Origin: Xanthostigma xanthostigma
Taxonomy: Eukaryota; Arthropoda; Insecta; Raphidioptera; Raphidiidae
Reading direction: 5' to 3'
NCBI GenBank assembly: GCA_963575645.1
Contig: OY754469.1
Span: forward strand, 49,000,753-49,064,752
Length of the DNA: 64,000 nt
A program made the translations under genes and the position numbers. How positions within the stretch are numbered: position 1 is the stretch's first letter; each line of letters begins with the position of its first letter. Positions 29,741 to 60,264 of this stretch are shown piece by piece. The notes below the pieces were generated by a model that was given only the letters and a program-made list of their open reading frames with translations, did not search any database and was not told the DNA's origin.

Positions 29741-29774
29741 TGACGTTTCGATTCGGATTTAGATCTTCCTCAGA
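29741..29774 (-). ncRNA. Hammerhead-core-like motif
   Basis: Minus strand: CTGAGGA, A, GATCT, loop AAATCC, GAATC, GAAACGTC. The stem pairs at four of five positions including one wobble. See the finding on the motif family. Ribozyme activity is not established. Confidence 0.3.
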
Positions 29775-29879
29775 ATAATACTTGAGCTAAAAAAATTCAA
29801 AAATATAAAAAATTATTAATAACCAAGTGTGTATAGGCTAAGATGAAGGTTTCAATCTAAGTAAAACCTGGACACCAGT

Positions 29880-30125
29880 ACTACCAACCCACTGAATGGA
29901 ACGGCCAATCACAGAAGAGCATACTAAGACCGAGCAGAGAACACGAGCACGCTGACCATAAAAGAAGGAAGTATCTCACTTGTCGACACACTTACCTGTG
30001 AGCAGCCTGGAAGGACACTTCGCCCGCTACCACGTCGCCTTTGATAATGTCTATCGCAGTTGTAGACGATAAGTTAGGTAGAAAGACTAATAGATACAAG
30101 CCCGGAAACTAAGAAGATTTGGATT
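29880..30125 (+). repeat. Family H repeat, copy 1
   Basis: Contains 'gaacacgagcacgctgacca', 'acacttacctgtgagcagcc', 'gacacttcgcccgctaccac' and 'acaagcccggaaactaagaa'. At 30041-30075 it has TTGATAA, T, then a GTCTAT/GTAGAC stem and GATAAG, a decayed form of the hammerhead-like motif. Related copies are at 33660-33905 and 34316-34660. Confidence 0.7.
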
Positions 30126-30129
30126 AATA

Positions 30130-30679
30130 ATCAGTTTGTAATAAATAAAAATGTTGGAGTTTTTTTTTCAATATCAAAATTTTTATTTAGCTCGTTATTC
30201 TTCGAACTTACATTTGCGCAACCGTTGAGTAAAATATGACAGTGTGTGGTGAACTTTAGCAATAAGAAAACATTTTATTGTAAGTTGTATAGGTATAAGT
30301 ATGGAGAAAAGAGAGAAAGAGAGACGGAATGGCGTACACACAGCACTGGGCTGTTATACTGTTACGAGAACCACTAATATTTTGCTTGCCAGTCAAAAAG
30401 CCGTGTTCTTTCACACTTATATTGGTATTTTTATGACTGAACATATATAATGTATTGATTTTGTGTTCGTATTACATGCATGCACGCTTCCATGCACCTT
30501 AAAGCAGACAACACACCGTAATGTTTTCTTTTGTAATCTCTATTCTCATAACAGGATGGCCACATTTCAAATTTCCCTTATAATTCCAGGTTTTCCAGGG
30601 AGTTTATTATACTTTTTTTCATACCTCGATCGAAAGCACACACTTTCGGCATCAATTTTGTAAAGCAGAAAGTCTGTAA
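30130..30679. other. Unassigned stretch
   Basis: Nothing recognised. Short frames on both strands only. Confidence 0.4.
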
Positions 30680-31055
30680 TTTGCGCATTGGTGGGATTAC
30701 ACGCACCGATGCGGGAAGTACGTACGTTCGGGCGGCAGTAAAGAAAAACAACATATCAACTGTTGTTTAGATGTCGTTTCACGAGCAACCCTATTACATT
30801 TTAGCTAATAGTCGCGAACGGCTGTCATTCGTGCTTTTACGTATAACCTCAAAGCTGCTTGCTTGAAATTTATCTGTGTTTTTATGTAATTAATGTATTT
30901 AATAAGCGTACTTACGACCGAGGTATAAAGAAAAATAGTATACAACACACTAGCCGAAAGTTTGATATCCTTGAACTGCGCGTCAGCTTCGCCTCGGGCA
31001 TCATGACGCGCAGTGCAACGTATCAAACTTTCGGCCTTTGTGGTGTGATATAGTA
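30680..31055 (+). repeat. Family F repeat, copy 1
   Basis: Begins near gtgggattacacgcaccgat and ends with an inverted pair gccgaaagtttgatatcc / gtatcaaactttcggcc (30953-31040). A minus-strand copy enters at 63727 and runs off the window end. Fragments are at 57262-57356 and 57797-57850. Non-coding, class unknown. Confidence 0.65.
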
Positions 31056-31176
31056 ATTATTGTTTATCTGATTGTTTTATGACAGCCACTGAGTGTGGAT
31101 AAAGAGGAAGTCGAAAAGTCAATGATAATAACTATGTCTAAAAAAACAGTTGTGTGATTTTAAGAAACCACGACGC

Positions 31177-31502
31177 AAGTGAAACTTTTATTGGATTGTA
31201 GGCGTTGGATTGTAGACACTTATCCATCACGATTAATTATAAACAACAATATTCACATGAATACACGAATAAAAACATGTAAACACTGTTCAGCACTTGC
31301 CCGCATGACAGACTGACTATGTGTTATACATACTACACGGTCAGCTGATGCTAACCATGAGCGCCGCCATATTGGCCTTGGCTGCTCTACCGAGCGCCTA
31401 CTCCGAACGCCTTTCATTTCACCCCTACTCCGCGGCCGCCTGTAATGCGACATGCAACAGACGGCCAGAAAAATTCGGGGCGATAGAATAAAAGTTTCAC
31501 TT
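31177..31502. mobile_element. MITE with 16-bp perfect terminal repeats, 326 bp
   Basis: AAGTGAAACTTTTATT at 31177-31192 and its exact complement at 31487-31502. The interior at 31350-31445 is GC-rich ('gagcgccgccatattggcc', 'tccgcggccgcctg'). No coding. Confidence 0.75.
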
Positions 31503-31595
31503 TAAAAATATTTTTATATTAAAGAGGTATGCAAATGCTATAGCCATTTATGAAGAGCGCATCTTAGCAACGATGAGTTTGTAGAAACTGGATAC
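31503..31595. other. Spacer
   Basis: AT-rich, nothing recognised. Confidence 0.4.
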
Positions 31596-31850
31596 CTACC
31601 TAGAAAGCGGTATAATGTAAGACGTCTTGCATCCAACAGGAGACGAAGCGGGGCAGGGAGGTCTGCTGTTGCTATCAAACATTCCTGGTCTGATATGATA
31701 GCCGGTAGTTGGTACATCATCACAATACATAATGCCCAAGTCCTTCTTGTACCCCCTCTTCCAGTCTTCCAGCTGCACTGTCCTATATCTCTTACACACC
31801 AAATAGCTCCCAGCTATGTGTGTACACGTTGGTCCAATAACTAGTCCCAA
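31596..31850 (-). other. Unrecognised 84-codon frame in a GC-richer island
   Basis: Starts MGLVIGPTCTHIAGSYLVCK, continues with RTVQLEDWKRGYKK, and contains five cysteines. No known domain is apparent to me. Base composition is nearer balanced than the flanks, and a second minus-strand frame overlaps it (31538-31723). It could be a fragment of a captured exon or a transposon, or simply chance. Confidence 0.2.
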
Positions 31851-31916
31851 AAGTTTTAGTAGAAAATCTTAGAACATATCTGTAGCAAAAATTAAAAAAA
31901 ATATTTCTGTACTCTT

Positions 31917-32130
31917 AAGTTAAAATCTTTGATTAACGTCTGATTAGAACTCTTCAATAAATAAAATTATCGACTAACTATTCAGACAACTATAATAATA
32001 AAAATATATAACAAATCACTACATTAACGTTTCGGTCCTGATTTGTATCTTCTTCAGAAAAGCGCTAAAAAATACAAAAATTAATTAATAATAGTAAATA
32101 GTAAAATTCGCTTTAAGTTATTTTATATAA
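31917..32130 (-). repeat. Family I repeat with hammerhead-like motif, copy 1
   Basis: The edge carries 'ctttgattaacgtctgatta' and 'gaactcttcaataaataaaa', shared with copies at 49345, 52258 and 54141-54410. The motif at 32025-32057 (minus strand) is CTGAAGA, A, GATAC, AAATCA, GGACC, GAAACGTT, with a stem weaker than in the other copies. Confidence 0.65.
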
Positions 32131-32500
32131 TAAGGCAAAAGTCCCAATACCGGAACGACGAAGGGCATGTGACTAGTTTTTATTATTTAAAAAATATTTA
32201 TGCAGTTCATAAAAGACAGTATTTGCCCCATTATATAAAATGGACATTTGGCTATTCGATAATAATCAAATTAATAAGTTTTTCTGATATTTAATATATA
32301 AAATAAATGTTTTTCGAAGAAGTCTAAAAGACCCAGTATTGGAACGCTTAAAAAGCCTTGTCTTAATATCGGAATATGGTTGACCCAGTACCGGAATACT
32401 GAAAAAATTGGTGTATAATTTTATTTATTGAACTATTAAGTTAAGACTGAAAAAAGCTGGCAAAGAAGTTTGATGTAAAAAAAGTATGGAGAAAAAAAAT
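32131..32500. other. Unassigned stretch
   Basis: The word 'ccagtaccggaata' and relatives ('cccagtattggaacg', 'ccaataccgg') recur three or four times between 32140 and 32400. No gene. Confidence 0.4.
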
Positions 32501-32615
32501 CCTAAACTTTAAACACTAAACTTTAGTGTTTCCTGAAGATGAGAGCATAGCTCCCGAAATGTACATACGTTAATAAAACTGTTGTGGTAAGAAATCACTA
32601 TTCTTTATTTTTTTA
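32500..32615 (+). repeat. Hammerhead-like repeat, second subtype, copy 1
   Basis: Motif at 32532-32564: CTGAAGA, T, GAGAGC, ATA, GCTCCC, GAAATGTAC, one mismatch in a 6-bp stem. It is followed by 'taataaaactgttgtggtaa', whose complement precedes the copy at 48168-48199 on the other strand. Confidence 0.55.
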
Positions 32616-33510
32616 AAAGAAAATTAGAAATGTATAGGAAATTTTAAAACGATGCTTTTGAAACAATCTATATTTTTATATCGTTCGGCCAGCGCTGTTT
32701 GGTTTGTAGCTACCTTCACTACACCAGAATGTGAACATTTAATAATGGTGTCAGGGGATTTGAATACAAACATATATAATATTATGTACATACCTTCATA
32801 AGGTTACAAGCCGATGGGAAATCATGTGTTGTACGCCACTGGATAATACAACGACCACCGTCGGTTTAATAAATAATAATTGTATTAATATCAAAAGGCA
32901 CAATAGAAGGTCAAACGGAAAATTATTTTTAGTGTGCAGTCAACGAAAAAATAAATATTTTTTGTCCTGATATATCGCATAATGAATCTTTTAAATCATA
33001 TATTTGCAGATTACTGAGTCGGAAACCACTCTAATCATACATAGGTAGGTAAAAGTTCAATATTTTTAACGATTTTTAGTTATTTATAAGTTGCTTCAAC
33101 GAAAGAAAGTTTCGAGAACTAAACAAAGAATGCCTAATTACACGAACGGAAGAATTTGGAGTGGATAGGAAGAAGCAAGTTTGGGTTCATATTGCTTTGT
33201 TCTGCTTCTGGTTTCCAATTTGAATATAAAATGTCCAAAAATGATATTCTTTAAACAAAGATGAATTAACAATATTCTTGACTGTCCAGTTTTTGCGCTG
33301 TACTGGATGAGTGCGTGTGCCTCTGGAGGTGAAGGGAGAACGAAATAGAGAGAGAGAAAATAAATGCAAGGGGACTCCCGTAACCACACCTCCGTTTCAC
33401 CAACGTGATAAGCTTAATTGGTTTCCTCTTACAGTTCCTCTTTCTCTCCTTCTCACCCTTTAAATGAAATCGGTTAGCTCTAATCTGGAGTAAATTACTA
33501 AGAAACATAA
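32616..33510. other. Unassigned stretch
   Basis: Three overlapping minus-strand frames at 33138-33538 have no recognisable domain and use different frames of the same bases. No element ends seen. Confidence 0.4.
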
Positions 33511-33659
33511 TGAGCACACTGTATATACAGGATGTCACAGAAATTCACCGACAACTATGAAAATTATACTAGAATCCGTTGTATTTTCATTATGTCTAAA
33601 AGTGCCAGTTTTCAAACCATAATAAATTTTAGAAATTGTTGACAGAAGTGTTTAACTTG

Positions 33660-33905
33660 GACATCAGCACCGCGACATACAAAACCGGAACGACCACGAA
33701 AGAGCTACAACCGATCAGAGATCACTAAAACATTAAGCGTGAATTAAGGGAGAACACCAGTTAACGACACACTTACCGGTAAGCCGCCGAGGAGGACACT
33801 TTTCCCGTCGTCACACCGCTTTTGACAATGTCTAGACGAAACTTCAAGTAGAAATACAAATGAACAATAGCCTACAAGCCAGGAAATCAAGAAGGTTTGG
33901 AAGAA
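33660..33905 (+). repeat. Family H repeat, copy 2
   Basis: Shares 'acacacttaccggtaagccg'-type and 'gacacttttcccgtcg' landmarks with the other H copies, at lower identity. At 33822-33845 the motif is TTGACAA, T, then GTCTAGAC with no loop left, then GAAACTTC. Confidence 0.6.
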
Positions 33906-34315
33906 CGCCTACTCACTTGGATGTTCCCATGTTAATTCGATTAGATAGCCATTTCTATATTTCTCATCTAGTAAACAATCGCTAGAAACTAAAATTTCTT
34001 CCTACAAAACAATACTCTTTTCATATTGTTAATACAAAAGTCATGGCCATCTTGTTTTTTGATATATTAAGAACTCGTGTGGCACAGCACAACCAAAGGC
34101 GAGTTCTCTCAACACCTCATGCCAAATTAGTCACGTGCAGCATGAATGGCTAATGTATATTATTCTTGTTACACACTTTTATAAAACATCGTGTATATAT
34201 TTGGCCGTGCAAAAACAAGTCTATAATAGCATTCCGAGTGAAGCACTCCGAAAAGTTCTTTGAATACGACTGGAACGTCTACAGGTTGATTCAAACTCCT
34301 TCAGCATTGAGAAAG
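33906..34315. other. Unassigned stretch
   Basis: No gene. The 124-codon frame starting at 34166 runs into the H palindrome and has no family resemblance. Confidence 0.4.
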
Positions 34316-34660
34316 TTTATCAAAGGCGATGTGGTAGCGGGCGAAGTGTCCTTCTCGGCTGCTCACAGGTATGTGTGTCGACAAGTGTGGTACTTCCGTC
34401 TTTTATGGTCAGCGTGCTCGTGTTCTCTACTCGGTCGTAGTATGCTCTTCTGTGATTCTAGAAGAAGACCGAGTAGAGAACACAAGCACGCTGACCATAA
34501 AAGACGGAAGTACCACACTTGTCGACACACATACCTGTGAGCAGCCGAGAAGGACACTTTGCCCGCTACCACATCGCCCTTGATAATGTCTACCGCAGTT
34601 GTAGACGAAACGTCAGGTAGAAATATCTATGGACCACGGTATACAAGCCCGGAAACCAAG
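34316..34660. repeat. Family H, head-to-head palindrome
   Basis: Two ~120-bp arms (34316-34437 and 34469-34590) are near-perfect inverted copies ('gtgtcgacaagtgtggtact' and complement), separated by ~31 bp. Only the right arm continues into the full H end with the motif at 34580-34614: TTGATAA, T, GTCTAC, CGCAGTT, GTAGAC, GAAACGTC, a perfect 6-bp stem. Confidence 0.8.
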
Positions 34661-34902
34661 AATTGCACATACCGCTAAACTAGCGGTATGTGCTTTATTA
34701 TCGCTTTGTGCGTCAGAGCTGACTTTCGTTCATATAAGAAGTTATATCTAAGTTAATTTCACACGAAATCCATTCAAATTGAAGCTTTTTGAAAAGAGGA
34801 GATTCTAATCTATAAAATAGAACCATTTTTAAATCAATTTGAGTTCATAAATACTATTAAAATTGTAATTGAAAATCACAAACAGCAGTTGTCGGTTGGT
34901 CT

Positions 34903-34948
34903 GTACGTATGTACGTACGTACGTATGTACGTACGTATGTACGTACGT
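34903..34948 (+). repeat. (GTAC)n-type microsatellite in family K, copy 1
   Basis: Alternating gtacgtac and gtatgtac units. The equivalent place in copy 2 (41286-41346) is longer and purer. Confidence 0.9.
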
Positions 34949-35209
34949 CACGACTCTACAGATCGCAATTTTGGTCGGATTGCCTTGGGTTATATTTTAT
35001 TCACTTTGTTTACTATCAGACCAGAACCCTATTTAAATTCACTAAAATGTGTTCAGTAGTTTAATTTTTATAAACAGTTTTATTTTTTATTATTTTTGAC
35101 AGCTAATTAATAGTTTAAAAACAATATAATAATTGCTGGCTAAACATAGTGTAATCCATAAAACAAGTGCTACACTTGTATACCGTGATAACACCACTAT
35201 ACGTATTAG

Positions 35210-35282
35210 GCAGCCGTGGCGTAATGGTTATGCCGTCGGATCGCCAAGGGCAAGGTCCTGGGTTCGATTCCTTACGATATCA
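35210..35282 (+). tRNA. tRNA-like body in family K, copy 1 (pseudogene)
   Basis: A-box-like GTGGCGTAATGGTTATGCCG and B box GGTTCGATTCC (35261-35271) are spaced as in a tRNA. Anticodon stem and acceptor stem do not pair well. It sits in the same slot as the body at 40953-41024 but differs at many positions. Confidence 0.45.
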
Positions 35283-35539
35283 TTGATATTTTTCTTTTTT
35301 TTTCTTTTTATTTTGTTTTATTTTATTCCACTTGATATTAATTATATATTATATTATGTATAGTACTTAATTTTTTTTATTTTTGCAAACTTAAAAAAAA
35401 ATATTTTTTCAATTTTTAATTATTTATTTCTTTAAATTTTTAAATCTTTTTAAATTTATTAAAAATATTTTTTAATTGTTATTTTTTTATCATACAGTGG
35501 AAAACTTGCGGGATGTGCACTTTTGGTTTTGCCAACTAT

Positions 35540-36130
35540 ATTTAAATTAGTACCATTTCGACACGTGTTGGAACGGTAAAAAACTGTTCACAAAAACCAA
35601 GGGCACTAAAAAATTAAATCTGGTGCTGGGAATAATTATTAAGGGTGAATCTAAAGTAGTACCAAATATAATTTTCGACTAATTGAAGAATATAATCAGA
35701 CGCTAATCAAAGTTTTCTCTAAAGTAGTAATATCGCAAGTTTTTGCCAAATATTATTGATGCACTTATAATAAAATATGCAACATAATAACACATAATTA
35801 GATCATATAGGCACAATTAAAATTATACGGAAAGATAAGAAAGAGCTATGCAATATAAAATTTAAAGTTCATAATAAGTTAAGAAAAACCCGTTATACGG
35901 AGTTTGTACACTCCTATTAATATCCGTTTGGTAGATCGAGGACACCAAATGTATCGTGGTTTTGTTTCTTTTAATCCTATACCTAATGCATTTCTCAGTA
36001 GGTAACTATACTTTGACTACCCTAAAAAAGGGGAACCCAAATTTTAGAAACTGACTGTTATCATTCCGTGAATGAATTTTCGAAGACTATTTTTATTTTA
36101 AATGACATATCATATTACTATACATTAGAT
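35540..36130. other. Unassigned stretch with a family I edge
   Basis: 35673-35715 ('cgactaattgaagaa', 'cagacgctaatcaaagtttt') is a diverged edge of family I. Otherwise nothing recognised. Confidence 0.4.
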
Positions 36131-36396
36131 CAGTGGTTCCCAAACTTATTTGGCCTACCGCCTCCTTTTCAGAAAAAAATATTACTCAGCGCCCCGTTGA
36201 ATTTTTCTTTTTAATTTTAACAGAAATTAAACGGAAAAATATGTGTATTAATGTTTCTAGCTTTTTTGTAAAATATAGTAAAGAAATGTGTAAATTAGAA
36301 AAATTGAAGTTTAAAATTATTAAACTAGGTATTTGAGTTCTGAGTTCAGAATTCATCGCCCCCAAATTCACCTGTGGCCATCACCGCCCCCCTGGA
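36131..36396 (+). mobile_element. hAT-like element, truncated on the right
   Basis: Starts CAGTGGTTCCCAAACTTATT, followed by 'ctaccgcctccttttcag' and 'cagcgccccgttga'. This is the end of a widespread non-autonomous hAT type. The expected inverted partner is missing: the sequence passes directly into MITE family G at about 36397, inside 'ccaccgcccccctgg...' context. The 67-codon frame is chance. Confidence 0.7.
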
Positions 36397-36652
36397 TTTT
36401 AAAGCCGTTGTGACTCCCACCACCTCCCAGCTACCTGCACGGAACGTGCGCTCGTCGGAGATTGGCCGTGATCACTCGTTGCCTTTGTCACGTGTCGCTT
36501 TCCTGCTTTAAAGTACAGTCGAGTACGCTATTGTCAAGTTGTTATTTTAGTTTTGTTGACTTGCGAGTTGGTAGTTTTTCAACAGACTGTACAAGCGCAA
36601 GCCTGCATTCGCATCTAACTTCCGAGCCTTTTAGATTCGTGGCGCGTATATA
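36397..36652 (-). mobile_element. MITE, family G, copy 2, truncated
   Basis: Matches 'ggaacgtgcgctcgtcgg', 'gtcgctttcctgctttaaag' and 'acttccgagccttttagatt' of the other G copies in reverse. The right terminal repeat (ggcgcgtata) is present and the left one was lost at the junction with the hAT. Confidence 0.7.
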
Positions 36653-45250: not shown

Positions 45251-45290
45251 TTGTCTGACGTTTCGGCAAACTTTATGCCATTTTCGAAGA
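45251..45290 (-). ncRNA. Degenerate hammerhead-like motif
   Basis: Minus strand ends in GGCA, loop, TGCC, GAAACGTC. The upstream box reads TCGAAAA instead of CTGANGA. It is kept as a related member because the right half and spacing match. Confidence 0.2.
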
Positions 45291-45885: not shown

Positions 45886-47724
45886 TAATAATAATAATAA
45901 TAATTTATTCATATTATGATGTATACATAGGTACATATTGAAAAGTCAAGAAATGGTAAATACGAAATCAGATCGTGTCATTTAAATATTCCTTACAACT
46001 ATAATAACACTTATTACTTAACATGGCTTTGCACTCTTTTAGAAAAGTACTTGTATTTTTAATATCTTTAATATTACAAGACAATTTGTTATAAAACTTG
46101 TGCCCCCAATATTAGTCCGGGAGCTGTCGATCTAAAAAGCCCCCTCATATGTGCATGCAATTTTTTTTATGTAAATTAATAGTTTAAAAGTATATAAACA
46201 AGAAACGCTTGGTTTGCGTTGATTTAAATAGCCGAAAAAATGTTTAAAAAAATTAATTATAAAAAAATGACATTAATGTTTCTCCTACATCACGGATATT
46301 GGTTGCTAGCATCCAATTTTACAAAAAAATTCGTGCTTTTTAAGAAAACATTCGCGCAAACCAATTTTTTTTGCCGAGAGAGTCAGGCAACCCTCTTAAA
46401 GTTTGTGATGAGGGAGAAAATTTCACCGTCATTCGTAACATAATTTTTTTTTTTCATTTTATTCGTTTTAGTGTGAATTTTAAGAATATGTAGGTTTGCG
46501 GGCTCTAAAATTGCCGGAAATACTCCGCAAACCAGTTTTAAATGCGCTAGCTCCAAGCTTATTTTCCACTAGTAATATTTAAATCAATAAATTTATATTA
46601 AAATTATATATATAGAAACATTGGTCGACAATTTTATTTACTTAAAATAAATGTTATATAAAATTAAATATTGAATTTTTTTTTAGATTTATAATTATGA
46701 AAGGATATATATGATCATGACACAATAGACTGAAGGGACTAGTCAGCTGCAACATTCAAAAATGCTATAGGACAACCATTACCTTTACCAAAAAAAAAGA
46801 AATGCTTATATATCTCCTCTCTGTCTTAAAGTATTATGTATACCCTATAGCAGATGCAGGTAAATTTCAAGCGTACAGAAGAAAGAAAGAGAAAAATTTC
46901 TATAAGTTATTCCACTGCAGCAACTGTATCATGTATAAAAAAAAAAGAAAAATTAAATTTTGTAAGAAACAAAATCAATATTAATATAACAAACAAGATT
47001 ATAATAATTGTGGAACAACAGTAGTTCTACAAAAAACATCTATTTTAATATAAATTTATTGATTTAATAGTGGAAAATAAGCTTGGAGCTAGCGCATTTA
47101 AAACTGGTTTGCGGAGTGTTTCCGGCAATTTTAGAGCCCGCAAACCTACATATTCTTAAAATTCACATTAAAACGAATAAAATGAAAAAAAAAAAATTAT
47201 GTTACGAATGACGGTGAAATTTTCTCCCTCATCACAAACTTTAAGAGGGTTGCCTGACTCTCTCGGCAAAAAAAATTGGTTTGCGCGAATGTTTTCTTAA
47301 AAAGCACGAATTTTTTTGTAAAATTGGATGCTAGCAACCAATATCCGTGATGTAGGAGAAACATTAATGTCATTTTTTTATAATTAATTTTTTTAAACAT
47401 TTTTTCGGCTATTTAAATCAACGCAAACCAAGCGTTTCTTGTTTATATACTTTTAAACTATTAATTTACATAAAAAAAATTGCATGCACAATATGAGGGG
47501 GCTTTTTAGATCGACAGCTCCCGGACTATATGTAGGGCCTTGCTCAAAAAATGACAAGTTATGTTTGGGTGTTCTAATATTTGAACTATCTCTAGTGCAG
47601 TAATTATGGATATCACTGTTAAGAATGCATTGATCTGCGTTATTTTTAATTGATTTTAAACATTCATATATGTATATGAATGATAACGGAAGAATTTTAA
47701 ACTGCTTAAATATAGGCCTGCAGG
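45886..47724 (-). pseudogene. LINE (CR1/Jockey-like) fragment, split by a foldback
   Basis: The minus-strand frame entering at 47724 reads RPIFKQFKILPLSFIYIYE, then NSDIHNYCTRDSSNIRTPKH and FFEQGPTY. It stops matching at 47529 and resumes at 46112 as WGHKFYNKLSCNIKDIKNTS to a TGA at 45968-45970. The two halves join in frame if the foldback and one copy of TAT are removed. The tail at 45886-45905 is (ATT)n. acatacatacata-type repeats flank the LINE, as expected for insertion into family L. It was 5'-truncated before the foldback arrived. Confidence 0.85.
46113..47528. mobile_element. Foldback element, ~490-bp near-identical arms
   Basis: Ends TAGTCCGGGAGCTGTCGATC and its complement. Arms 46113-46610 and 47035-47528 surround a 424-bp loop. 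TAT lies on both sides, and the interrupted LINE frame confirms the 3-bp duplication. The arms are so alike that both encode the same 67-codon chance frame, identical in every residue. No transposase in the loop. Confidence 0.9.
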
Positions 47725-47790
47725 ACATACATACATACATACAAACTTACAAGTGAAACTAATATAAAGCATGTAAAATGACATCAGCGG

Positions 47791-48114: not shown

Positions 48115-48215
48115 TAATAAAAAATAGAGAATAGTTACTTCTTACCACAACAAGTTTATTAGTGAATGTACATTTCGAGAGCTATGCTCTCATCTTCAGC
48201 AATACACTACGTGTT
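48115..48215 (-). repeat. Hammerhead-like repeat, second subtype, copy 2
   Basis: Minus-strand motif at 48168-48199: CTGAAGA, T, GAGAGC, ATA, GCTCTC, GAAATGTAC, a perfect 6-bp stem. The flank 'cttaccacaacaagtttatt' matches the copy at 32572-32592. Confidence 0.6.
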
Positions 48216-49339: not shown

Positions 49340-50000
49340 TTTTATACAAATCTTTGATTAACGTCTGATTAGAATTCTTGAATAAATAAAATAATCGACC
49401 ACAAAATTAATCGGGATAGTATAAAAAGTTTAGATAATGAAACAAATTTCTTTACAAGAAATATTTCGGAAATGTTACATATAAAATCAAATAAAAGTTC
49501 AAATAATTTTTGTTTTTAATGAATTTTTTCTTTCTTTTTAGGTATTTAGATATCCATGATTACTTATTAAAAATTGGTTGTCTGTAAAGTCGATTTACGG
49601 ACGATAGTTTTACGTGATAACGTATTCCGTAATACATAACCTAAATTTTAGTAGCTGTCAAACTTGGGCCGAAGCATACTGCGCTCTCGCTTGCACGCAC
49701 AGGGTCAGGCGGAACGTTACACTTTTTCGTGCGTGCAGCTGGTGTTTCATCAATTTATAAGACGTTATCACGTCAAAATTGTTTGTTATTAATATTCCTA
49801 ATTTTCAAAAATTATTTAAAAAATTCAAGTTTAATTCTATCGTAAAATAAGTAGACACTAATTCTTTTTTATATTTTTTAGATTATATATTTCAGAAGAA
49901 GGTCCAAATCCGGAACGAAACGTCAATGTATTAATTATTAATTTTTGTTAATAATGTATTTGTCTGAAAAATTGGTCGATAATTTTACTTATTGAAATAT
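49340..50000. repeat. Family I repeat, copy 2, split by a family B element
   Basis: Left edge 'ctttgattaacgtctgatta' (49353-49372), right edge 'ggtcgataattttacttatt'. The motif at 49893-49924 (plus) is CAGAAGA, A, GGTCC, AAATCC, GGAAC, GAAACGTC. Family B copy 5 sits inside. Confidence 0.65.
49570..49778 (+). mobile_element. Family B element, copy 5, internally deleted
   Basis: ~209 bp with both ends intact. It is nested in a family I repeat, so B moved after that I copy had arrived. Confidence 0.75.
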
Positions 50001-50466
50001 TTATTATATTTGAAATTATTATTGCATGTTTAGATCTACATACAAACAATTTCGCTTTATATATTTGTTTTTGTATAATATACAGCAGATAAGTACATAA
50101 TACGTACACGTCGTACAGGTATGTTTGTATGGCACATATATGTCTGTATATAGGATCACGTAGACGACGCTCAGCGTCCCGATCCGACGCCCAGCGTCCT
50201 TCACCCAACGGTACGCTGCTTCATGCATATTCCACAATCTCATTTGACTGCATAATCTCAACGCCGGTGTATACAGCTTGTTTACAATGACAGCCAAACG
50301 CCTGCCTGGTGGCCTCGCATTAGCCAACCGACACGTTGCGCTAAAGTCGGACGCACGCTGACACATTATTAACCGTGCGACAATTTTCCTACAGTGGCAT
50401 TTACCATATAGGCATTTAATACCCTCTATAGATACATTTTCCTAACATAGAGTTGGTCATACATTT
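50001..50466. other. Unassigned stretch, partly GC-rich
   Basis: 50160-50215 contains a direct repeat (gctcagcgtcccgatccg and gcccagcgtcc). The overlapping minus-strand frames are not convincing. Confidence 0.4.
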
Positions 50467-50949
50467 AATACCCTCTATATTGCTAGCAAAGATCGGGAGA
50501 AAGACTTAAACACTACGGTGCAGACATACGTCTGTCTCTCTTATTATACTCTGAGACTCGTGCGCATGTCCGTAAATGGATGCGCGTCAGGTGCAGCGTC
50601 AGTTTGCACATGGAACTAAGCTGTGAAAGGGAGGTGGCTTGTTAATATCCTCTATATTGCAAGTAAAGATCGGAAGAAAGACTTAAACACTACGGTGCAG
50701 ACATACGTCTGTCTCACTTATTATACTCTGAGTCTCATGCGCATGTCCGTGAATGGATGCGCGTCAGGTGCAGCGTCAGTTTGCACATGGAACTAAGCTG
50801 TGAAAGGGAGGTGGCTTGTTAATATCCTCTATATTGCAAGTAAAGATCGGAAGAAAGACTTAAACACTACGGTGCAGACATACGTCTGTCTCACTTATTA
50901 TACTCTGAGTCTCGTGCGCATGTCCGTGAATGGATGCGCGTCAATTGCA
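50467..50949 (+). repeat. Tandem array, 177-bp units, ~2.7 copies
   Basis: 'cctctatattgc' recurs at 50472, 50649 and 50826. Each unit contains 'aaacactacggtgcagacat', the palindromic 'gacatacgtctgtc' and 'cacatggaactaagctgtga'. The third is cut at about 50949. One more unit is at 9674-9850. Confidence 0.9.
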
Positions 50950-51700
50950 GCTCTATAAGAGAAAAATGTTTTTCACTCATTGACCTCTATAATTAAGACT
51001 ACCTGTCTATAAGCGATAGTAGAACGTATTAATAGTTCCACGAAATTTAAGAATGAGTCATAGATAGCTGAACTAACTAACATTGTTTCTATAGATCTCT
51101 GTAAATGAGAAAAGGTTAGTGAAAAACCTCCATAAGCGAAAAAGAGATCGCGGTCCCTTGAACTCTTGCTTATTCAGGTTCGACTGTATTTATATAAATT
51201 ATTGTATTGTCATGGATTCTTAATAAGTGTGCAAAATTTCAAATAATTCAGACGTCTGGAAGTGGATGACAATTAAATTGAAAGATTCCATTACATACAA
51301 GTGAGGTTAAGTTTGTCGCTTAATTGTGTTGTGAGCAAGATCAAGCGAATATAAAGCGTCCTTTTCGTATACAATCTACACTTTAACAGGTGCCGTAGTC
51401 GGTGCTACATAGCCGTTGTACGGATATCATGAATATATCAAAATGATTGTCCGTTGTTTCATAGCGCATTACATAACGTGGAGGGCAATATTAGCGGGAT
51501 AATTTAAACGGATTCATCTCAACAGTGTTGCGGTTAAGTATAGGGGAATAAACAATGACGTATCTCTGGATTTGGGAACACTTTCATTTGGCGTCGATCC
51601 GTTGTTGCGTAGTCACACATCCGGGCATGCTTAATATAATCAGAGCAGCGGCGAAACACTTCATAATGTTACAGTCTCCCCGTTGGGACAACAAAGATAT
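50950..51700. other. Unassigned stretch
   Basis: Nothing recognised. Confidence 0.4.
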
Positions 51701-52120: not shown

Positions 52121-52257
52121 TTTTATTATGTCGAGGGCAAATATAGATAGGTACCTACGTTTTAATTTGAACAAAAATCTAGAAATCTATTCAGGATAGG
52201 ATTTTTCAGGCGCGCTGATGATTCAAGTGATTTCAAAATTTTAATTTAACTTAATAT

Positions 52258-52745
52258 TCAAATCTTTGATTAACGTCTGAATAGAACTCTTCAAATAAAT
52301 AAAATTGTCGACCAATTTTTTTCAGACTATATATTGACAAAAATATAATTATAAATCAATATACTAATTAATTTTTATATTTTTTAGATTATTTCTGAAG
52401 AAAATCCAAATCCGGATCGAAGCGTCATCTTTCGTAATATTGATTTGTAATTATATTTTTGTCAATACAGTGTAATCTCAGTAATCCGGCACTATTAAAA
52501 ACCGGAGGGTGCCGGATTATTGGTATGTTCGGATTACTGGATTATAGTGAAAAAGTCATAGGCAATGAATAAAATAAAGCATTTCATAGAGGGAATAAAT
52601 GTATGTTATGTATTAAATTATATATAGAGGGGCGAAGGAGGCGTGGGCGGAGGGTGCCGGATTATTGGACGTACCGGATTAGTTAGATTATACTGTATAT
52701 AGTCTGAAAAAAATTGGTCGACAATTTTATTTATTTGATTAACTC
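52258..52745 (+). repeat. Family I repeat, copy 3, split by a pogo-like MITE
   Basis: Edges 'ctttgattaacgtctgaata' and 'ggtcgacaattttatttatt'. The motif at 52395-52426 is CTGAAGA, A, AATCC, AAATCC, GGATC, GAAGCGTC, with the A of GAAA changed to G. The internal MITE separates 'tatatttttgtcaata' from 'tatagtctgaaaaa'. Confidence 0.7.
52468..52695. mobile_element. pogo/Tigger-like MITE, 228 bp
   Basis: Terminal repeats CAGTGTAATCTCAGTAATCC and the complement of CAGTATAATCTAACTAATCC, with TA at 52466-52467 and 52696-52697. The 'gtgccggattattgg' core is doubled. These ends resemble pogo/Tigger elements. Confidence 0.85.
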
Positions 52746-53692: not shown

Positions 53693-53889
53693 TGCTAACA
53701 CTGTAGGTGTCGAGGCGTGCCATGAAAAGTGTATCTACCTTAAATACTTAGTAAACCCGATTTCACACTCCTAAGAAAATACAAACATAAAATATTACTG
53801 TTTCGTGCCCTGAAAAAAATTATTCAGTCTTTGCAAAATAAGTTTTGTTTATGGCAAATGGCAATTTATTCAGAAGACGATGTTTGTGA

Positions 53890-54085
53890 TTTTACCCCAA
53901 ACATCCTCCCAAAATTTGGTTTCAATACGTTCATCGTGATCACAGACAAACAGACGCACAGAGTTTTTTCCAAAAATATGTTTTTTTGGATACGGGGGAC
54001 CTCAAAACGAAAAGATATTGTAAAATTTTGAAAAGTGATTTTTGACCTAAGCTTGTACCATTGCCCACTTGTGGGTTGGAATGAT
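53890..54085 (-). repeat. Dispersed repeat, family M
   Basis: Minus-strand version of 59640-59850: 'tcccaaaatttggtttcaat', 'tccaaaaatatgttttttt' and 'cctcaaaacgaaaagatatt' all have complements there. The frames on both strands are chance. Confidence 0.65.
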
Positions 54086-54140
54086 AATTTAAATAAAACT
54101 GTTTTATTGAAAAAATGTTCGGTTTTGTGTTTACTAGGGG

Positions 54141-54410
54141 ATAAGTATAGAATAAATAAAATTATCGACCAATATTTCAGACAATATATTAACAAAAAAT
54201 ATAATTAATACATTAACGTTTCAATCCGGATTTGGACCTTCTTCAGAACTGATCTAAAAAATATAAAAAATAATTAATATTTAATTTCTAATTCGCTTTA
54301 TATAAAATTCTTTCAAAATTATTAATTAGTATCAAAATATTGAAAAAATAATAATTTTATTTATTGAAGAGTTCTAATCAGACGTTAATCAAAGATTTGG
54401 ATTTCCCCAA
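54141..54410 (-). repeat. Family I repeat, copy 4, uninterrupted
   Basis: The clearest full copy: inverted edges 'aataaataaaattatcgacc' and 'ataattttatttattgaaga' plus 'cagacgttaatcaaagattt'. The motif at 54215-54246 (minus) is CTGAAGA, A, GGTCC, AAATCC, GGATT, GAAACGTT, with a fully paired stem if G-U pairs are allowed. Confidence 0.7.
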
Positions 54411-55560
54411 ACGGATTTCTTTCAGTTCTGTTAATATGTTGTGTGTAGACTAAAAACCCTACGTGCAGAAAGCTAATTTTTTGAACAGCTTATTCGCTAT
54501 GTGCAACATCAAAGCGGAGACATCTAGCGTTATTTATCGGCGAACCCACTGCTACTAAAATACATTATGTCAAATGGGACAACAAGTAAAACGTGAATTA
54601 AAATTAAAGTTAAAGATAAAAGTGAAAAGTATGGATGCTATATTAAAAACGGGTTTTGAAAAAATAAATCATTCTTTAAATTTTCACCCTCAAACTGTGC
54701 CAAAGGGTAAAGCTATCGCTGTGTAATTGATGTTGTTTCAGCTAGATTTTCTAAAGTGGAATAAAAATTCTAGACAGTGTTGTCCTGTGTACGGAAAATA
54801 TTGCACCTATTCCTGTAAATGTCAAAGCAGTTTTCATCTTGAAAAGAAAAATAAATAGTCTAATTTTTAGATATTTGAATTTTTTGTGAAACTGTCAATT
54901 TGTTCAGAAAATAATTATAAGTCTCAAATGATACACCAGAAAGATTTCTTAGCTGTTTATCATTTGTAACTGTTCCTTGAAAAGTAATTGAATCATCAAC
55001 AAATTCATTGTACATCACAATCAGGTTCAACTGCTGTATCGACATTCGACAAACTATTTTTGAGGCGTACCTCGAGTTGCCAGGCCTTAAAATTCAAAAG
55101 CCGGATTCGGCGCTGTATTAGGCCGGACATTTTGCCCTAAAAGCCGGACATACATTTTTTAAAAGTCAAACACACCTTTTTAAAGCCGAACATCACATTT
55201 AAAATAAAAAAAACTCAGTTAGGTTCGTAATAAAGTTGTTTATTAATTATTTAATGTGAATCACAGATTTGTTATAAAATTAACAACATTAACAGTTCTA
55301 CGCACCTATTATTATCATTTGTATTTATACCTATGATATTGATGAAGTGAAAAATGGTCAGTCTTCTGTAATCTATTAATAGGTAAATTTAAAAAAAACA
55401 AAACAAATATAACAAAATACTAAAAGTTTTTGTTAACCAAATCAAAAACGTATATCCATTCTTTTGGATAAAAACAAAAAGATCTTTATTAAAAAATAGC
55501 AATTTCAAACTCTTGAAAAATATCAAAAAAGTCTTTACCTTAGGTTTATGTCAATGGTAC
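54411..55560. other. Unassigned stretch
   Basis: 55075-55195 has four 'aaaagccggacat'-like words at ~30-40 bp spacing. No gene. Confidence 0.4.
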
Positions 55561-56099
55561 ACGAGCAGAAGGTTTGCTATCTTTCGCCGCTACGTGCGCA
55601 TTGTCGTTCAACGCCTTCGTTCCAAGCAGCTGCACATAGCGAATATGTATCGTAGGTACTTATGTAAATAGACACACAACAATAGCACATAGCTAACAAT
55701 AATGCTACTTTCACGTTGACCCTTATATAAGCAAATCTCAGTCAACGCCGACCTACTGTCGACGCTAACGGGCACATTGCGCCCTACCGTTGCGACGCCA
55801 CGGTCCTGTTTGCACGTACACACTAATAATAGTGCCACTCGCCTCAAAATGGCACCGCACATACTCCTACACACACACACTTGCATTCTACTCCAACGAG
55901 GCCGTTGACTCGGTTCGATTCGAATCATCGACGTGAATAGTCCAGAGTAGACGCTAAAGACAAATGTCGAATTATTGCGTTTTCTAAAACAGACATGAAA
56001 TTTGGTAGAATTGTACTTCAGAACTCTATTCTCAAATGAAGGAATAAGTTGAGCGTTATGGATTAATAGCCCCGCTAAAAGAGTGTTTGTGCTCCTCCT
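55561..56099. other. Unassigned stretch, GC-richer part at 55580-55930
   Basis: The 106-codon minus frame (55608-55928) has a cysteine- and arginine-rich composition but no family signature, and is probably chance in a GC-richer tract. Confidence 0.35.
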
Positions 56100-56104
56100 T
56101 ATCC

Positions 56105-56790
56105 TGAACCTAGTCCTCCAATAGTTTGGATCTTCTCATGAACTCCAGAAGATCGGTGACTAGACTGTCCTGAGGAATTGCTTCGCTCTCATCAAAGTAT
56201 CCAAAGATGTTCTCCTGTAGGCTAGGGTATCACATTCGAACAGTTGGTTGGCGGTTTCGTCTTCCATTTCGCAAAATCTACACTGTGTGGATATCCTGAC
56301 GTATCCGTGTGTAGATGTTTCCTTAGGCGTCAAGAGTTTGATCAAGTCCTGTTTAAAGGGCCCACAAGCATTCTTTTCCCATGTAAGTTTCCTGGATTCA
56401 AACTCCAGTCAGTGATTTGCTGATTGCGGGTCCAGCTTTTGACAGTTCGTTGAATATTTGTATAAATAATGCCACAAACTGGTTTTGGTCCAATGAACTT
56501 TGCAGAGGCTCCTTGTCGAGCAAGTCTATCCGCCATCTCATTGCCCCAGATACTTTCATGATCCGGTACCCACATTAAACATACTTTGTTCTTAGTTCCC
56601 AGATCATTGAGTAGACGATGGCAATCCCACACCAGTTTTGAACTGATTTTGTGGGATTGCAGTGCTTTGATTGCCGCCTGGAAATCAGGATGAGTTGGTT
56701 CTCCTGCGCACATACGGTAATTGCCATTACTTCAGCTTGAAATGCAATGGCATGAGTACCGATGTTAAATTTGTTACAAAGAAAAGAAAT
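56105..56790 (-). pseudogene. LINE ORF2 RNase H domain and C-terminus, frameshifted
   Basis: Minus strand, upstream to downstream: GTHAIAFQAEVMAITVC (56714-56775, with the catalytic-type E of FQAE), a 1-base frameshift near 56709, then PDFQAAIKALQS, VWDCHRLLND, VCLMWVPDHESIWGNEMADR and LARQGA (56342-56713). A second frameshift near 56343 leads to CRFCEMEDETANQLFEC, a CxxC...H/C-type cysteine pattern. This is the RNase H and tail region of a non-LTR element from the I/R1/LOA/Jockey side. The D of DSQ survives in PDFQ, and the expected G of VPGH is D. No RT domain upstream. Confidence 0.8.
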
Positions 56791-57261
56791 GATTTTTGCA
56801 CTGTTTCATTAAAATGCAACCGTGTTTCGAACATTTTGTGATTGTGGATGGAGAACGGAGCTTGCCGAATGCAAGCATAATAGACGTCAGCCACCATAAT
56901 AAACGCGCGGATGGGTAATTAGCAGCGGTGGGAAATGTTTAAACAGCGTTATAATAATATGACTGACAGATATCAAGTCGGGGAAATGCATTTGAACCCT
57001 AGCATTAGCTGTGACTGAATGACAAATGAAATAAAACTGACGATACGGTTATATATTCATTGTCAGAGAACATCTACAGACGATTCGCTTGATATTGTGT
57101 GAACATACCTCCCTCCATATTTCTCTGTTAACAAATGGAATCTAGAAGACTTCCTATACTCTGCAACATGTGATAAGAACTGGCATCTTATCAATAAAGA
57201 GAGCATAGAGCGATTCAAAACATCAAGCCTCGGTTAAACGAATGGAAGAATTAGAATTATT
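56791..57261. other. Unassigned stretch
   Basis: Nothing recognised. Confidence 0.4.
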
Positions 57262-57356
57262 ATGGAAACGACATCTAAACAACAGTTAATAGATGATTTT
57301 TCTTTACTGCCGCCCGAACGTACGTACTTCCGGCATCATTGCGTGTAATCCCACCA
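57262..57356 (-). repeat. Family F fragment
   Basis: Reverse match to 30688-30790 ('gccgcccgaacgtacgtact', 'gcgtgtaatcccacc'). A second piece on the plus strand at 57797-57850 ('gccggaagtacgtac', 'accgaagtatgaagaaaa') flanks the intervening palindrome. Confidence 0.6.
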
Positions 57357-57461
57357 ATATTAATTAATAGAAAAATGTCTTTGTTGTATTGACGAGTTTT
57401 AATTTTATCTGTATTTTAATTATTTTTGTTGTTGTTATTATCATCCATAATTATAAATATA

Positions 57462-57672
57462 TATTAATAATATCAGGAATGTGGACCACTACATTGGCAC
57501 AATAATTATTACATGTAATAATTATTGTGCCAATGTAGTGGTTAAGTAAGTACATATGTAATTATTTCAGATGCCTGAGGAAGGTCTAATAAAGACCGCA
57601 ACGTTGCAGAAATAATAAAGTGATTATTATTTACCATCTTATCTAGTCCACATTCCTGATATTATTAATATA
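57462..57672. mobile_element. Inverted-repeat element with hammerhead-like motif
   Basis: Outer arms atattaataatatcaggaat and its complement at 57648-57672. Inside are a perfect 56-bp palindrome and the motif at 57575-57606: CTGAGGA, A, GGTCT, AATAA, AGACC, GCAACGTT, a perfect 5-bp stem with GAAA changed to GCAA. Confidence 0.65.
57486..57541. repeat. Perfect 56-bp palindrome
   Basis: CCACTACATTGGCACAATAA and the next eight bases are followed with no spacer by their exact complement, centred on ACATGT. Confidence 0.95.
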
Positions 57673-57844
57673 TATTTTAATTATTATTTATGTAATGTAT
57701 ATTGACATATTTCACAGCTTTTATGCTATTCTCGAAATAAATCTTTTAAATTTAAATTTAAAAATAAATTTGAATAAAATTTAAGAAAATGCATAAAATT
57801 GATGCCGGAAGTACGTACTTTCGACCGAAGTATGAAGAAAACTG

Positions 57845-57985
57845 TCATTTATTCGATCAATTATTTTTCGAGTAGGATTGATTTTAAAAACCTCCCTGCT
57901 TCTCTTGTGTATAGAAATATATGTGGTCACAAACTACAGTCGTGTCAAAACAGATTTCCTGACAACGCTTTTGGCAATCCAGCAT
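57845..57985 (+). pseudogene. Unidentified conserved reading-frame fragment, copy 2
   Basis: Plus-strand relative of 13297-13436. YSINYFSSRID is in one frame and KTDFLTTLLA in the next, so at least one frameshift separates them. Shared nucleotides also extend to 'gacaacgct' and 'ggcaat..cagcatta'. Protein family unknown. Confidence 0.3.
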
Positions 57986-58694
57986 TATAGGACTAGCACG
58001 GAGTTTTCAGTTGAATTCGTGATCTATGTTTGTGCGCCAATATCAAAAAAACAAATACATTATGTTATGAGGGTCGCCTGTGATCGGGCGCCCCTTGCCA
58101 GTAACCACTAACCAAACCTATGTTTGTTTTCAATATATAACATCAGTTGGTTATGTCAAATCGATCATTAGTATTTGCATTATGCAGTTGCCACTTAGTT
58201 AATCGTCCAGCGGGTTGATACAGCGACATATTTTTTGCTCTTTTTTTAACGAAATAGGGTGCTAGCAAAAACAACGGGGCTATAAATACACATAAATCGT
58301 TCATTAAAACTAACAAATTAATGTAAAATCGTTAACATTGTTTTCAGCATTTTGGATTATTTTACCCCCAAAGCAAATCCCAAAGTTATGATAATACGAC
58401 AGGATTAAAAAAAAATATATAAATTGACATTTCTCTCATATTTTTTTAAAAATATTTCTATAGCTCGAATACCATTGCAATTTTATACGCTGGTGTTGGT
58501 ATTAACTCCAGTGATGCTCAACCAAAACCTTCCTTCGTTGTAAGATTCCTGTTAATGATTAACAGGCACATCAATAAACAAGGATGAAAGCTGGTATGAA
58601 CGTAAAAATGTTCACAGGCTTTTAGATACGACTTTTAGAAGAGACCAAAACAGACGCAGATTGTAATTTTAGATAGTTGCTAGATTGTAGTTAA
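57986..58694. other. Unassigned stretch
   Basis: Nothing recognised. Confidence 0.4.
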
Positions 58695-59262
58695 CTAGAA
58701 TGACCTGTGCGAATTATTCGCACTAAATAAGTATAATTATTATCACTTTACAAAATTATTTTTTAAATATGATTGCAGGTATTCAATTCGTTTTTAATTT
58801 TGCACACTGCTTATAACGTTCTTCTTTTTGTTGTATTACAATATGAAGCTCAGATGACAGATCGACGAAATATTTTACTAAAATTGTCATATAGAGGCGC
58901 AAGTAGCAAAAGCGTTGAGCCGTCAGATGGCATCATGCAGCAATGCTGTGACGTTGTTCAGCGTTGTTCGCTGTTTCAAAATTAAAGCCGTCAGATGGAA
59001 GTCTGCAGTATTTACAATATGAAGGTCAGATGACAGATCGAAGTGTTGACGTTGTTTCAAAATTAAAGCCGTCAGATGGCAGACGTTGTTCACCGTTGCT
59101 GTTAATTAATTAATTTACAAAAACAAAAGCAACAATAAATTTTTTAGTTGTCGATGTCAGTAGAGCAAGCAATTATCTGTAAAATGATATATAATTTATG
59201 TGGAGAAATTGTGAGGTTTTTTCTAAAAAGGGAGGCAAATCTCTTAACCTTAACGTATATAT
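58695..59262 (-). mobile_element. Helitron-like element, family A, copy 4
   Basis: Minus-strand 3' end with hairpin, AGGTCATT, CTAG next to T. Long version with the internal duplication, like copy 3. Confidence 0.65.
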
Positions 59263-59629
59263 AGGTACTTATGATGATGTATTTATTCATTTCTACGTTT
59301 AAAAGTAGTCAGGTTATGTGAGGGTGTTAGATGAAACGTGATCCACCATATACATATTATGTTTGTCCGGTCGTACGAAACACAATTATCGTTATATGTA
59401 GGTATTGTTTAATCAGCTGAATAAACCATAACTAATAACTCTATTCAATATTTACACTGACACGGCGCAAGTCTAGCTCTGGCTAGCTCACCTCTGGGTA
59501 TATACAGTATAAACATTGAACAAACTATAACGCCGCGCTTTATATGACGAAGACTATTTCCTGTAGTGGAAATTCAACATGGAAGAAAGGCAATAAGACC
59601 ATCGCCTTTTCTTCCGAACATCAATTACC
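59263..59629. other. Unassigned stretch
   Basis: Nothing recognised. The 105-codon frame starting at 59544 is mostly family M sequence. Confidence 0.4.
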
Positions 59630-59900
59630 ATTCCATATTTCCAACACACAAGTGGGGAATGGTACTAGTTTAGGTCAAAAATCCCTTTTCAAAATTTTAC
59701 AATATCTTTTCGTTTTGATGTCCCCCGAATCCAAAAAAAACATATTTTTGGAAAAACTCTGTGCGTCTATTTGTCTGCTAGTCTGTGAGCACGATACAGG
59801 TCAAACAGATGAACGGATTGAAACCAAATTTTGGGAGGATGTTTGGTATATGCAAATATGAAGGGCCCCATTGTTTTTGGGGCAAATCGGCGCATGCTAT
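59630..59900 (+). repeat. Dispersed repeat, family M, best copy
   Basis: 'acggattgaaaccaaatttt', 'gggaggatgtttgg', 'gcaaatatgaagggcccc' and 'gggcaaatcggcgcatgc' in order. It is interrupted on the right by the element at 59917-60264. Confidence 0.7.
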
Positions 59901-59916
59901 AACAGTGTTTTTTATA

Positions 59917-60264
59917 AGGAGAAAAATTAACGGGTGAAATAGCCAATTTAGAGTTATAGAATTTTTATTTTTATAGTATCGTCAACGTTTCGCTAACGTT
60001 TGTTAGCATCCTCATAATACTAAAAGTTAAACTTTTATATCTTAGTTGGTAAGAATTGTTTGTAATTTTGTTATTTCGGTTCATGTATTCTGCTAATTAT
60101 TGTACTTATATTGTGCATATTTATATGATCCTTAGGTCCTGAGGATGCTAACAAACGTTAGCGAAACGTCGACGCTACTATAAAAATAAAAATTCTATAA
60201 CTCTAAATTGACTATTTCACCCGTTAATTTTTCTCCTTATCAAGATCACAGCCGTCATCGTATC
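59917..60264. mobile_element. Inverted-repeat retroelement-like unit with 16-bp duplication
   Basis: Arms of about 100 bp (gagaaaaattaacgggtgaa to tttgttagcatcctca, and complements) are inverted. It is flanked by the perfect 16-bp direct repeat aacagtgttttttata (59901-59916 and 60265-60280). Each arm holds a hammerhead-like motif: plus 60139-60170 (CTGAGGA, T, GCTAAC, AAAC, GTTAGC, GAAACGTC) and minus 59983-60014 (ATGAGGA, same stem, GAAACGTT). Confidence 0.8.
60139..60170 (+). ncRNA. Hammerhead-core-like motif, best example
   Basis: CTGAGGA and GAAA flank a perfect 6-bp stem with a 4-nt loop. One extra T lies between CTGAGGA and the stem, which canonical hammerheads do not have, and stems I and III cannot be drawn with confidence. 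Confidence 0.35.

What the first reader, a model, noticed from the sequence alone, without database searches (positions are those of the whole stretch)
29741..60170. A recurring hammerhead-core-like motif in several unrelated repeats
Seen: about fourteen places on both strands share a box close to CTGANGA, one unpaired base (T or A), a 4-6 bp hairpin, then GAAA(C/T)GT. Loci: 29741, 30041, 32025, 32532, 33822, 34580, 45251, 48168, 49893, 52395, 54215, 57575, 59983, 60139. Stem sequences differ (GCTAAC, GAGAGC, GTCTAC, GGTCC, GGTCT) while pairing is mostly kept, which suggests selection on structure rather than copying alone. Known: hammerhead ribozymes have CUGANGA, stem II, GAAA, and occur in Penelope-like elements. 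Against: the extra base before stem II is not canonical and stems I and III are not visible. Inference: the repeats may come from Penelope-like or other ribozyme-bearing retroelements.
Basis: partly seen in the sequence, partly recalled or inferred. Interest (0 to 1): 0.82.

Follow-up and report, generated by a model that had tools for sequence, protein, structure and literature searches.

The report
Decayed hammerhead ribozymes in mobile repeats
At least four, probably six, dissimilar repeat families in this stretch of animal-like DNA carry the same small self-cutting RNA shape (a stripped-down hammerhead ribozyme) that is already known from Penelope-type jumping elements; most copies here look worn out, so the find is real but not new.

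Summary
CTGANGA...GAAA(C/T)GT occurs exactly 6 times where 0.07 is expected. The 14 loci form six families (A-F). Stem I pairs directly beside the box and exactly one base (H17) after ACGU; of 32 registers only this one ranks first of 720 family permutations. Stem II covaries between families. Stem III is absent: GAA is followed by the palindrome ACGU (AUGUACAU in B), which can pair only between two copies. A covariance model from A-C finds F independently (E 5e-5), E only marginally and D not at all. D and E carry U3/A8 instead of C3/G8, a swap already reported in natural hammerheads. This is the minimal type I hammerhead described for Penelope-like elements (PLEs) and as thousands of dispersed metazoan copies. 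Supporting PLE origin: head-to-head inverted arms, a weak candidate target duplication, an AUG overlapping the core. Against: no PLE protein domain in 150 ORFs, no Rfam hit, no close tandem copies, an unfavourable modelled dimer, only 6 of 14 cores intact. Activity untested. New members of a known kind.

The parts
60139..60170 (+). family C minimal hammerhead, intact core: box 60139-60145, extra T, 6-bp stem II, GAAACGU, H17 = C at 60170; predicted cut 60170/60171; AUG at 60145-60147
59984..60015 (-). family C hammerhead, C3 mutated to A; 6-bp stem II; outer stem I TAGTAT/ATACTA read from the flanks
59905..60014 (-). family C left arm, head-to-head inverted copy (95%)
60140..60249 (+). family C right arm; the sequence up to 60264 is a possible tail (inference)
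59901..59910 (.). candidate 10-bp target site duplication AACAGTGTTT, left copy
   Evidence: a direct repeat of 10 bp or more in 1.8% of 2000 random pairs
60265..60274 (.). candidate 10-bp target site duplication AACAGTGTTT, right copy
48169..48199 (-). family B hammerhead, intact core, 6-bp stem II, GAA followed by the palindrome AUGUACAU
32533..32563 (+). family B hammerhead, intact core, one A-C mismatch in stem II, C-C mismatch at 1.1/2.1
54215..54246 (-). family A hammerhead, intact core, 5-bp stem II with two G-U
29742..29773 (-). family A hammerhead, intact core, 3-bp stem II
32026..32057 (-). family A hammerhead, intact core, eroded stem II
49893..49924 (+). family A hammerhead, U4A
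52395..52426 (+). family A hammerhead, A15.1G
52332..52467 (+). family A: 31-nt inverted arms (52332-52362 / 52437-52467, 97%) holding the hammerhead in the 74-nt tip
57575..57605 (+). family F hammerhead (A13C); the minimum-energy fold is stem I 3+8 bp with an AGA bulge plus stem II 5 bp
57455..57677 (.). family F: 32-bp perfect inverted arms (57455-57486 / 57646-57677) and perfect palindrome 57485-57542 around the hammerhead
34580..34614 (+). family D hammerhead-like motif with U3/A8, 6-bp stem II, GAAACGU; A-C mismatch at 1.1/2.1
30041..30075 (+). family D motif, decayed 3' box (GATAAGT)
33822..33845 (+). family D motif, loop II deleted, 3' box GAAACTT
34317..34586 (.). family D head-to-head inverted arms 34317-34436 / 34467-34586 (98%); the left arm stops at the box
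45257..45287 (-). family E hammerhead-like motif, U3/A8 and U4C, 4-bp stem II; possible only
   Evidence: E 0.15; 0.08 expected

Best explanation
These are minimal type I hammerhead ribozymes, most of them decaying, left in the genome by several lineages of Penelope-like retroelements (pseudo-LTR pieces and derived non-autonomous inverted-repeat copies). Layout: stem I, CUGANGA, one extra base, stem II hairpin, GAA, ACGU, H17, back to stem I. No stem III hairpin is possible where ACGU is contiguous. Two copies, from tandem pLTRs in one transcript or from two transcripts, would pair their ACGU palindromes as a shared stem III and cut after H17. Shown here: the motif, both stems, their covariation, the register, the inverted arms. 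Inferred from published relatives: Penelope origin, dimer cleavage, and a role in trimming element RNA into unit-length templates. Most copies in this window are probably inactive.
For: Exact motif 6 against 0.07 expected. A window-wide scan on core, stem II and stem I ranks 60139, 48168, 59983, 54215, 57575 and 29741 first (expected 0.01 or less each, 100 shuffles); with the U3-A8 swap allowed 34580 and 45251 join them (0.013 and 0.08, 300 shuffles). Stem I only in the hammerhead register: rank 1 of 720. Stem II: rank 1 of 720. Pair counts 84.5% against 55.7%, 0 of 500 shuffles. Model from A, B, C finds F at 5e-5. H17 is not G in 14 of 14 (weak, as G is rare here). F folds unaided into hammerhead stems I and II. 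[quoted passage not shown] ORF starts at stem II; [quoted passage not shown]); at 60139 the distance from A of AUG (60145) to H17 (60170) is 26 nt, the same if the paper counts from that A, which the passages do not say. PMC7761336 section 8. Head-to-head inverted pLTRs, tails and TSDs in PLEs (PMC3846280 passages), resembled by C and D.
Against: No Pfam RT or GIY-YIG match in the 150 longest ORFs (62 aa or more; of 458 of 45 aa or more); only an RNase H passed 0.001. No hammerhead family of Rfam at E up to 10. The base inserted before stem II is outside the canonical consensus. By duplex energy stem I is weak and fades with flank length (own -2.37 against cross -1.21 at 10 nt, -3.63 against -2.21 at 14 nt, -3.94 against -3.50 at 20 nt; sd 1.7-2.0). 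In one search the number of pairs with double change (7 against 6.1; 176 of 500 shuffles reach it) is unremarkable. The modelled hammerhead dimer is less stable than the free dimer fold, and than two free monomers, in 7 of 7. 49893, 32532 and 32025 score near chance alone, and 52395, 30041, 33822 are not among the 22 rows printed. For 48168 a second register (AUGUACAU as stem III) gives as many inner stem I pairs (2; read). Only 6 of 14 cores are intact. Nearest like-oriented copies of one family are about 0.76 kb apart (33822, 34580).
Confidence: 0.83

Rival explanations
1. The motif descends from PLE hammerheads, but in these elements it is kept for another job: as a start-codon hairpin or a protein-binding/RT-initiation site, not for self-cleavage.
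For: In B, C, D and E the extra T makes AUG across A9-U-G10.1. In the one PLE tested in vitro, hammerhead mutants did not change insertion, and no RNA-seq ends were found at the cut site (PMC11167929 passages).
Against: Conservation here is of the catalytic boxes and both stems in hammerhead register, more than a start codon or hairpin would need; in both B copies the fourth codon of that AUG frame is a stop, and A and F have no AUG there.
Confidence: 0.11
2. Non-autonomous retrozymes (metazoan non-LTR retrozymes with type I hammerheads).
For: Short elements, type I layout, hairpin-rich.
Against: Retrozymes occur as tandem repeats with canonical type I hammerheads (PMC7229834 passages; PMC7761336 section 8); here copies are dispersed or inverted, and none of the 28 tandem repeat rows overlaps a motif.
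Confidence: 0.04
3. Chance matches in AT-rich, hairpin-rich repeats.
For: Loosely defined motifs (up to 3 mismatches, 4 bp or more) are common: 38 in the window against 25 in shuffles; D and E are not significant with the strict core (0.35 and 1.1 expected).
Against: Exact motif 6 against 0.07; rank 1 of 720 for stem I and for stem II; several dissimilar families.
Confidence: 0.02

Closest known systems
[quoted passage not shown] Lunse, Weinberg and Breaker 2017; neither held, known here through citing passages and reference lists)
   Same: Type I layout, short stem I, stem II hairpin, no stem III, many dispersed copies in metazoan genomes
   Different: No protein-coding PLE seen in this window; whether the one-base insertion before stem II is usual in PLE hammerheads could not be read in the sources
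PAc, Poseidon element of Anolis carolinensis (PMC11167929, passages)
   Same: Hammerhead with stems I and II, start codon at stem II, cut site 26 bp after the start codon (26 nt at 60139 if counted from A of AUG)
   Different: Full ORF there; here only short fragments
Penelope pLTR arrangement in Adineta vaga (PMC3846280, passages)
   Same: Head-to-head inverted pLTRs, palindromes at the junction, optional tail, 8-10 bp TSD; families C and D resemble this
   Different: Arms here are 110-120 nt and no ORF was recognised; the TSD is only a candidate
Natural hammerheads with the U3-A8 core pair (PMC3088659, section 8)
   Same: D and E boxes have U3 and A8 together
   Different: E also has U4C; D copies carry further damage

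Membership tests
hammerhead ribozyme, type I minimal | core CUGANGA / GAA-A...U-H with conserved residues | tested here: met
   6 of 14 loci intact, in families A, B and C; 7 of 14 if U3-A8 is allowed (34580); the rest have one or more core changes
hammerhead ribozyme, type I minimal | stem II hairpin between the boxes, covarying | tested here: met
   rank 1 of 720; helix 89.7% paired, 4 of 5 pairs changed on both sides
hammerhead ribozyme, type I minimal | stem I closing directly beside C3 and H17 | tested here: met
   (76.2% paired, 3 of 3 pairs with changes on both sides); weak by duplex energy
hammerhead ribozyme, type I minimal | H17 is not G | tested here: met
   14 of 14
hammerhead ribozyme, type I minimal | self-cleavage, as dimer | not testable with these tools
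   needs RNA; the dimer geometry was only scored by an energy model, where it is less stable than the free dimer fold in 7 of 7
canonical hammerhead (Rfam models) | match to an Rfam hammerhead family | tested here: not met
   Searches (whole window; around C and B): none at E up to 10
canonical hammerhead (three stems) | stable stem III | tested here: not met
   after GAA comes ACGU in 9 of 14, AUGU in 2, GCGU in 1, damaged in 2
Penelope-like element | RT plus GIY-YIG ORF | tested here: not met
   no match in the 150 ORFs of 62 aa or more; the other 308 ORFs of 45 aa or more were not scanned, so short remnants are not excluded
Penelope-like element | pLTRs in direct and/or head-to-head inverted order, TSD | tested here: inconclusive
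   head-to-head inverted arms in C and D; one candidate 10-bp TSD, 1.8% chance per element with 11 elements looked at
Penelope-like element | minimal hammerhead in pLTR | tested here: inconclusive
   the motif lies within or at the end of repeat arms in A, C, D; that these arms are pLTRs is inferred
metazoan retrozyme | tandem repeats with canonical type I hammerhead | tested here: not met
   none of the 28 tandem repeat rows overlaps a motif

The most novel reading that the evidence does not exclude
Families A and F are non-autonomous foldback elements in which long inverted arms act as an extended stem I and present a minimal hammerhead at the hairpin tip, while D and E are separate lineages carrying the U3-A8 core pair: several ribozyme lineages co-existing in one genome, with the ribozyme spreading in short inverted-repeat elements moved by PLE enzymes.
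Probability: 0.15. Interest if true: 0.4.

Novelty: new member of a known kind. Interest (0 to 1): 0.22.

Why it matters
It shows that repeats of this region carry the known PLE-type hammerhead in at least four, probably six, dissimilar families, gives the exact register (extra base, no stem III, ACGU palindrome), and supplies a covariance model that catches copies which Rfam's models miss in this window. It also adds candidate natural cases of the U3-A8 core swap. It does not change what is known of hammerheads.

Tried and rejected
Chance: rejected for A, B, C and F. Canonical hammerhead with stem III: three family A copies (32025, 49893, 54215) could form a 3-bp ACG/UGU hairpin after GAA, but stem I would then start at a place where they have 1, 0 and 0 inner pairs, against 2, 2 and 3 in the register used (read from the flanks; over the six families the register 7 bases after GAAACGT ranks 356 of 720). 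Retrozyme: no tandem arrays with the motif. PLE protein in the window: not found. The folding test with an artificial linker is void (the constraint blocked all flank pairs). Duplex energies support stem I only weakly. Target duplications: of 11 elements looked at, only C gave a convincing one; F also gave a 10-base repeat, but it is AT-only and lies inside its arms; D30041 (7 bases), A32025 and A49893 (8 bases each) gave shorter ones that I did not count.
Full report
What was claimed.

Observation. All 14 exist. Six have both boxes exact; 0.07 would be expected from shuffles. 34580 (0.35), 32025 (0.44) and 45251 (1.1) are not significant by that strict score; 49893 (2.9) and 32532 (3.4) score poorly because box or stem II is damaged, and 52395, 30041 and 33822 are not among the 22 rows printed; these belong to families A, B and D by sequence. 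BLAST groups the loci into A (5, of which 29741 joins only with short words), B (2), C (2), D (3), E (1) and F (1). No hammerhead family of Rfam matches at E up to 10 in the window or in short stretches around C and B.

The missing stems. If these are type I hammerheads lacking stem III, stem I must begin directly 5' of the box and exactly one base (H17) after GAA-ACGU. Pairing the 5' flank of each family with its own 3' flank in that register gives 14.2 summed contiguous pairs against a mean of 6.8 over all 720 family permutations, rank 1; of 32 registers tested only this one ranks first (the next, rank 15, contains part of the same helix). Restricted to A, B, C, F or to A, B, C, D it ranks 1 of 24 in each. 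Duplex energies agree only weakly, and an anchored folding test failed technically. For 48168 the register is ambiguous, because AUGUACAU can itself be the palindrome and leaves an equally good start of stem I (read). H17 is C, U or A in 14 of 14. Stem II within families beats every other permutation (22.5 pairs against 14.1, rank 1 of 720). On the 14-row alignment A7, 84.5% of cells pair (shuffles 55.7 +/- 3.3, 0 of 500; slides 29-38%), and 38 cells changed on both sides against 14 in shuffles (0 of 500); further pair types are 21 against 17.1 (25 of 500), and pairs with double change, 7 against 6.1 (176 of 500), are not unusual.

Model. A covariance model from A, B and C only (9 rows) finds those by construction, F independently at E 5e-5, E at 0.15 at the edge of noise, and no D locus up to E 10; the next match has E 1. 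So 10 loci (A, B, C, F) are firm, E is possible, and D needs a separate argument.

D and E. Both have U at position 3 and A at position 8. [quoted passage not shown] Allowing this swap in both window and 300 shuffles, 34580 is expected 0.013 times and 45251 0.08 times per window. In D, position 1.2/2.2 is G-C in 30041 and 34580 and A-U in 33822, while 1.1/2.1 is mispaired in 34580.

Surroundings. C is a pair of head-to-head inverted arms of 110 nt (95%), with a 10-bp direct repeat AACAGTGTTT at its ends; a repeat this long occurs in 1.8% of 2000 random placements and 11 elements were looked at, so it is suggestive only. D is a head-to-head inverted repeat of 120 nt (98%) whose left arm stops at the box. 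A has inverted arms that also occur alone; at 52395 31-nt arms enclose the hammerhead. F has 32-bp perfect arms and a 58-bp palindrome, and its minimum-energy fold alone gives stem I (3+8 bp, AGA bulge) and stem II. Head-to-head inverted pLTRs with palindromic junctions, optional tails and short target duplications are described for Penelope elements in PMC3846280 (passages). In B, C, D and E the extra base is T, which makes AUG with A9 and G10.1; [quoted passage not shown] At 60139 the distance from A of AUG to H17 is also 26 nt (60145 to 60170); whether the paper counts in this way was not in the passages seen. Among the 150 ORFs of 62 aa or more only an RNase H (1.1e-6) passed 0.001; no RT or GIY-YIG. 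The other 308 of 458 ORFs of 45 aa or more were not scanned.

How it would work. With ACGU contiguous a monomer cannot form stem III; two copies can pair ACGU with ACGU (AUGUACAU in B). The modelled dimer is less stable than the free dimer fold, and than two free monomers, in 7 of 7 cases, so help by protein or by tandem transcription would be needed; in PAc cleavage needed added protein. Cleavage and its role are inferred, not shown.

What is known. PMC7761336 section 8, read in full, states that many metazoan genomes hold thousands of minimal type I hammerheads lacking the non-conserved part of helix III, mostly dispersed, some in PLE pseudo-LTRs, which may cut as dimers, with in vivo activity and role unknown. 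PMC7229834 and PMC6155905 (passages) agree. The primary papers (Cervera and de la Pena 2014; Lunse et al. 2017; Arkhipova et al. 2017) are not held, so I could not check whether their consensus has the one-base insertion; [quoted passage not shown]

Verdict. Most copies are probably dead. The source organism was not identified; animal origin is inferred from repeat type and lack of long ORFs. On checking I lowered the family count claimed as firm to four, recorded the dimer energies and the ambiguous register of B as evidence against, and lowered confidence slightly (0.85 to 0.83).

Noticed in passing
57447-57684: Perfect 58-bp palindrome (57485-57542) and 32-bp perfect inverted arms around hammerhead F: looks like a young foldback element.
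   Followed up: partly
34317-34586: Head-to-head inverted repeat of family D, 120-nt arms 98% complementary.
   Followed up: partly
56345-56731 (-): ORF that by its sequence is the likely source of the single RNase H match (Pfam 1.1e-6, which does not name the member); probably a LINE remnant.
   Followed up: no
4496-5010, 20394-20791, 50465-50951: Tandem repeats of 174, 162 and 177 bp units.
   Followed up: no
1982-2148, 20096-20246, 23361-23435, 26477-26558, 61855-61953: Long hairpins that draw microRNA-family hits below gathering scores; perhaps hairpin-type non-autonomous transposons.
   Followed up: no
49343-49401, 35664-35716, 52690-52738, 46587-46680, 32403-32437: Partial copies of the family A arm outside the five hammerhead loci.
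   Followed up: partly
L018 76-109 (-), L033 11740-11773 (+): Two viral-contig matches with 6- and 7-bp uninterrupted stem II between exact boxes; no chance calculation was made for them.
   Followed up: no
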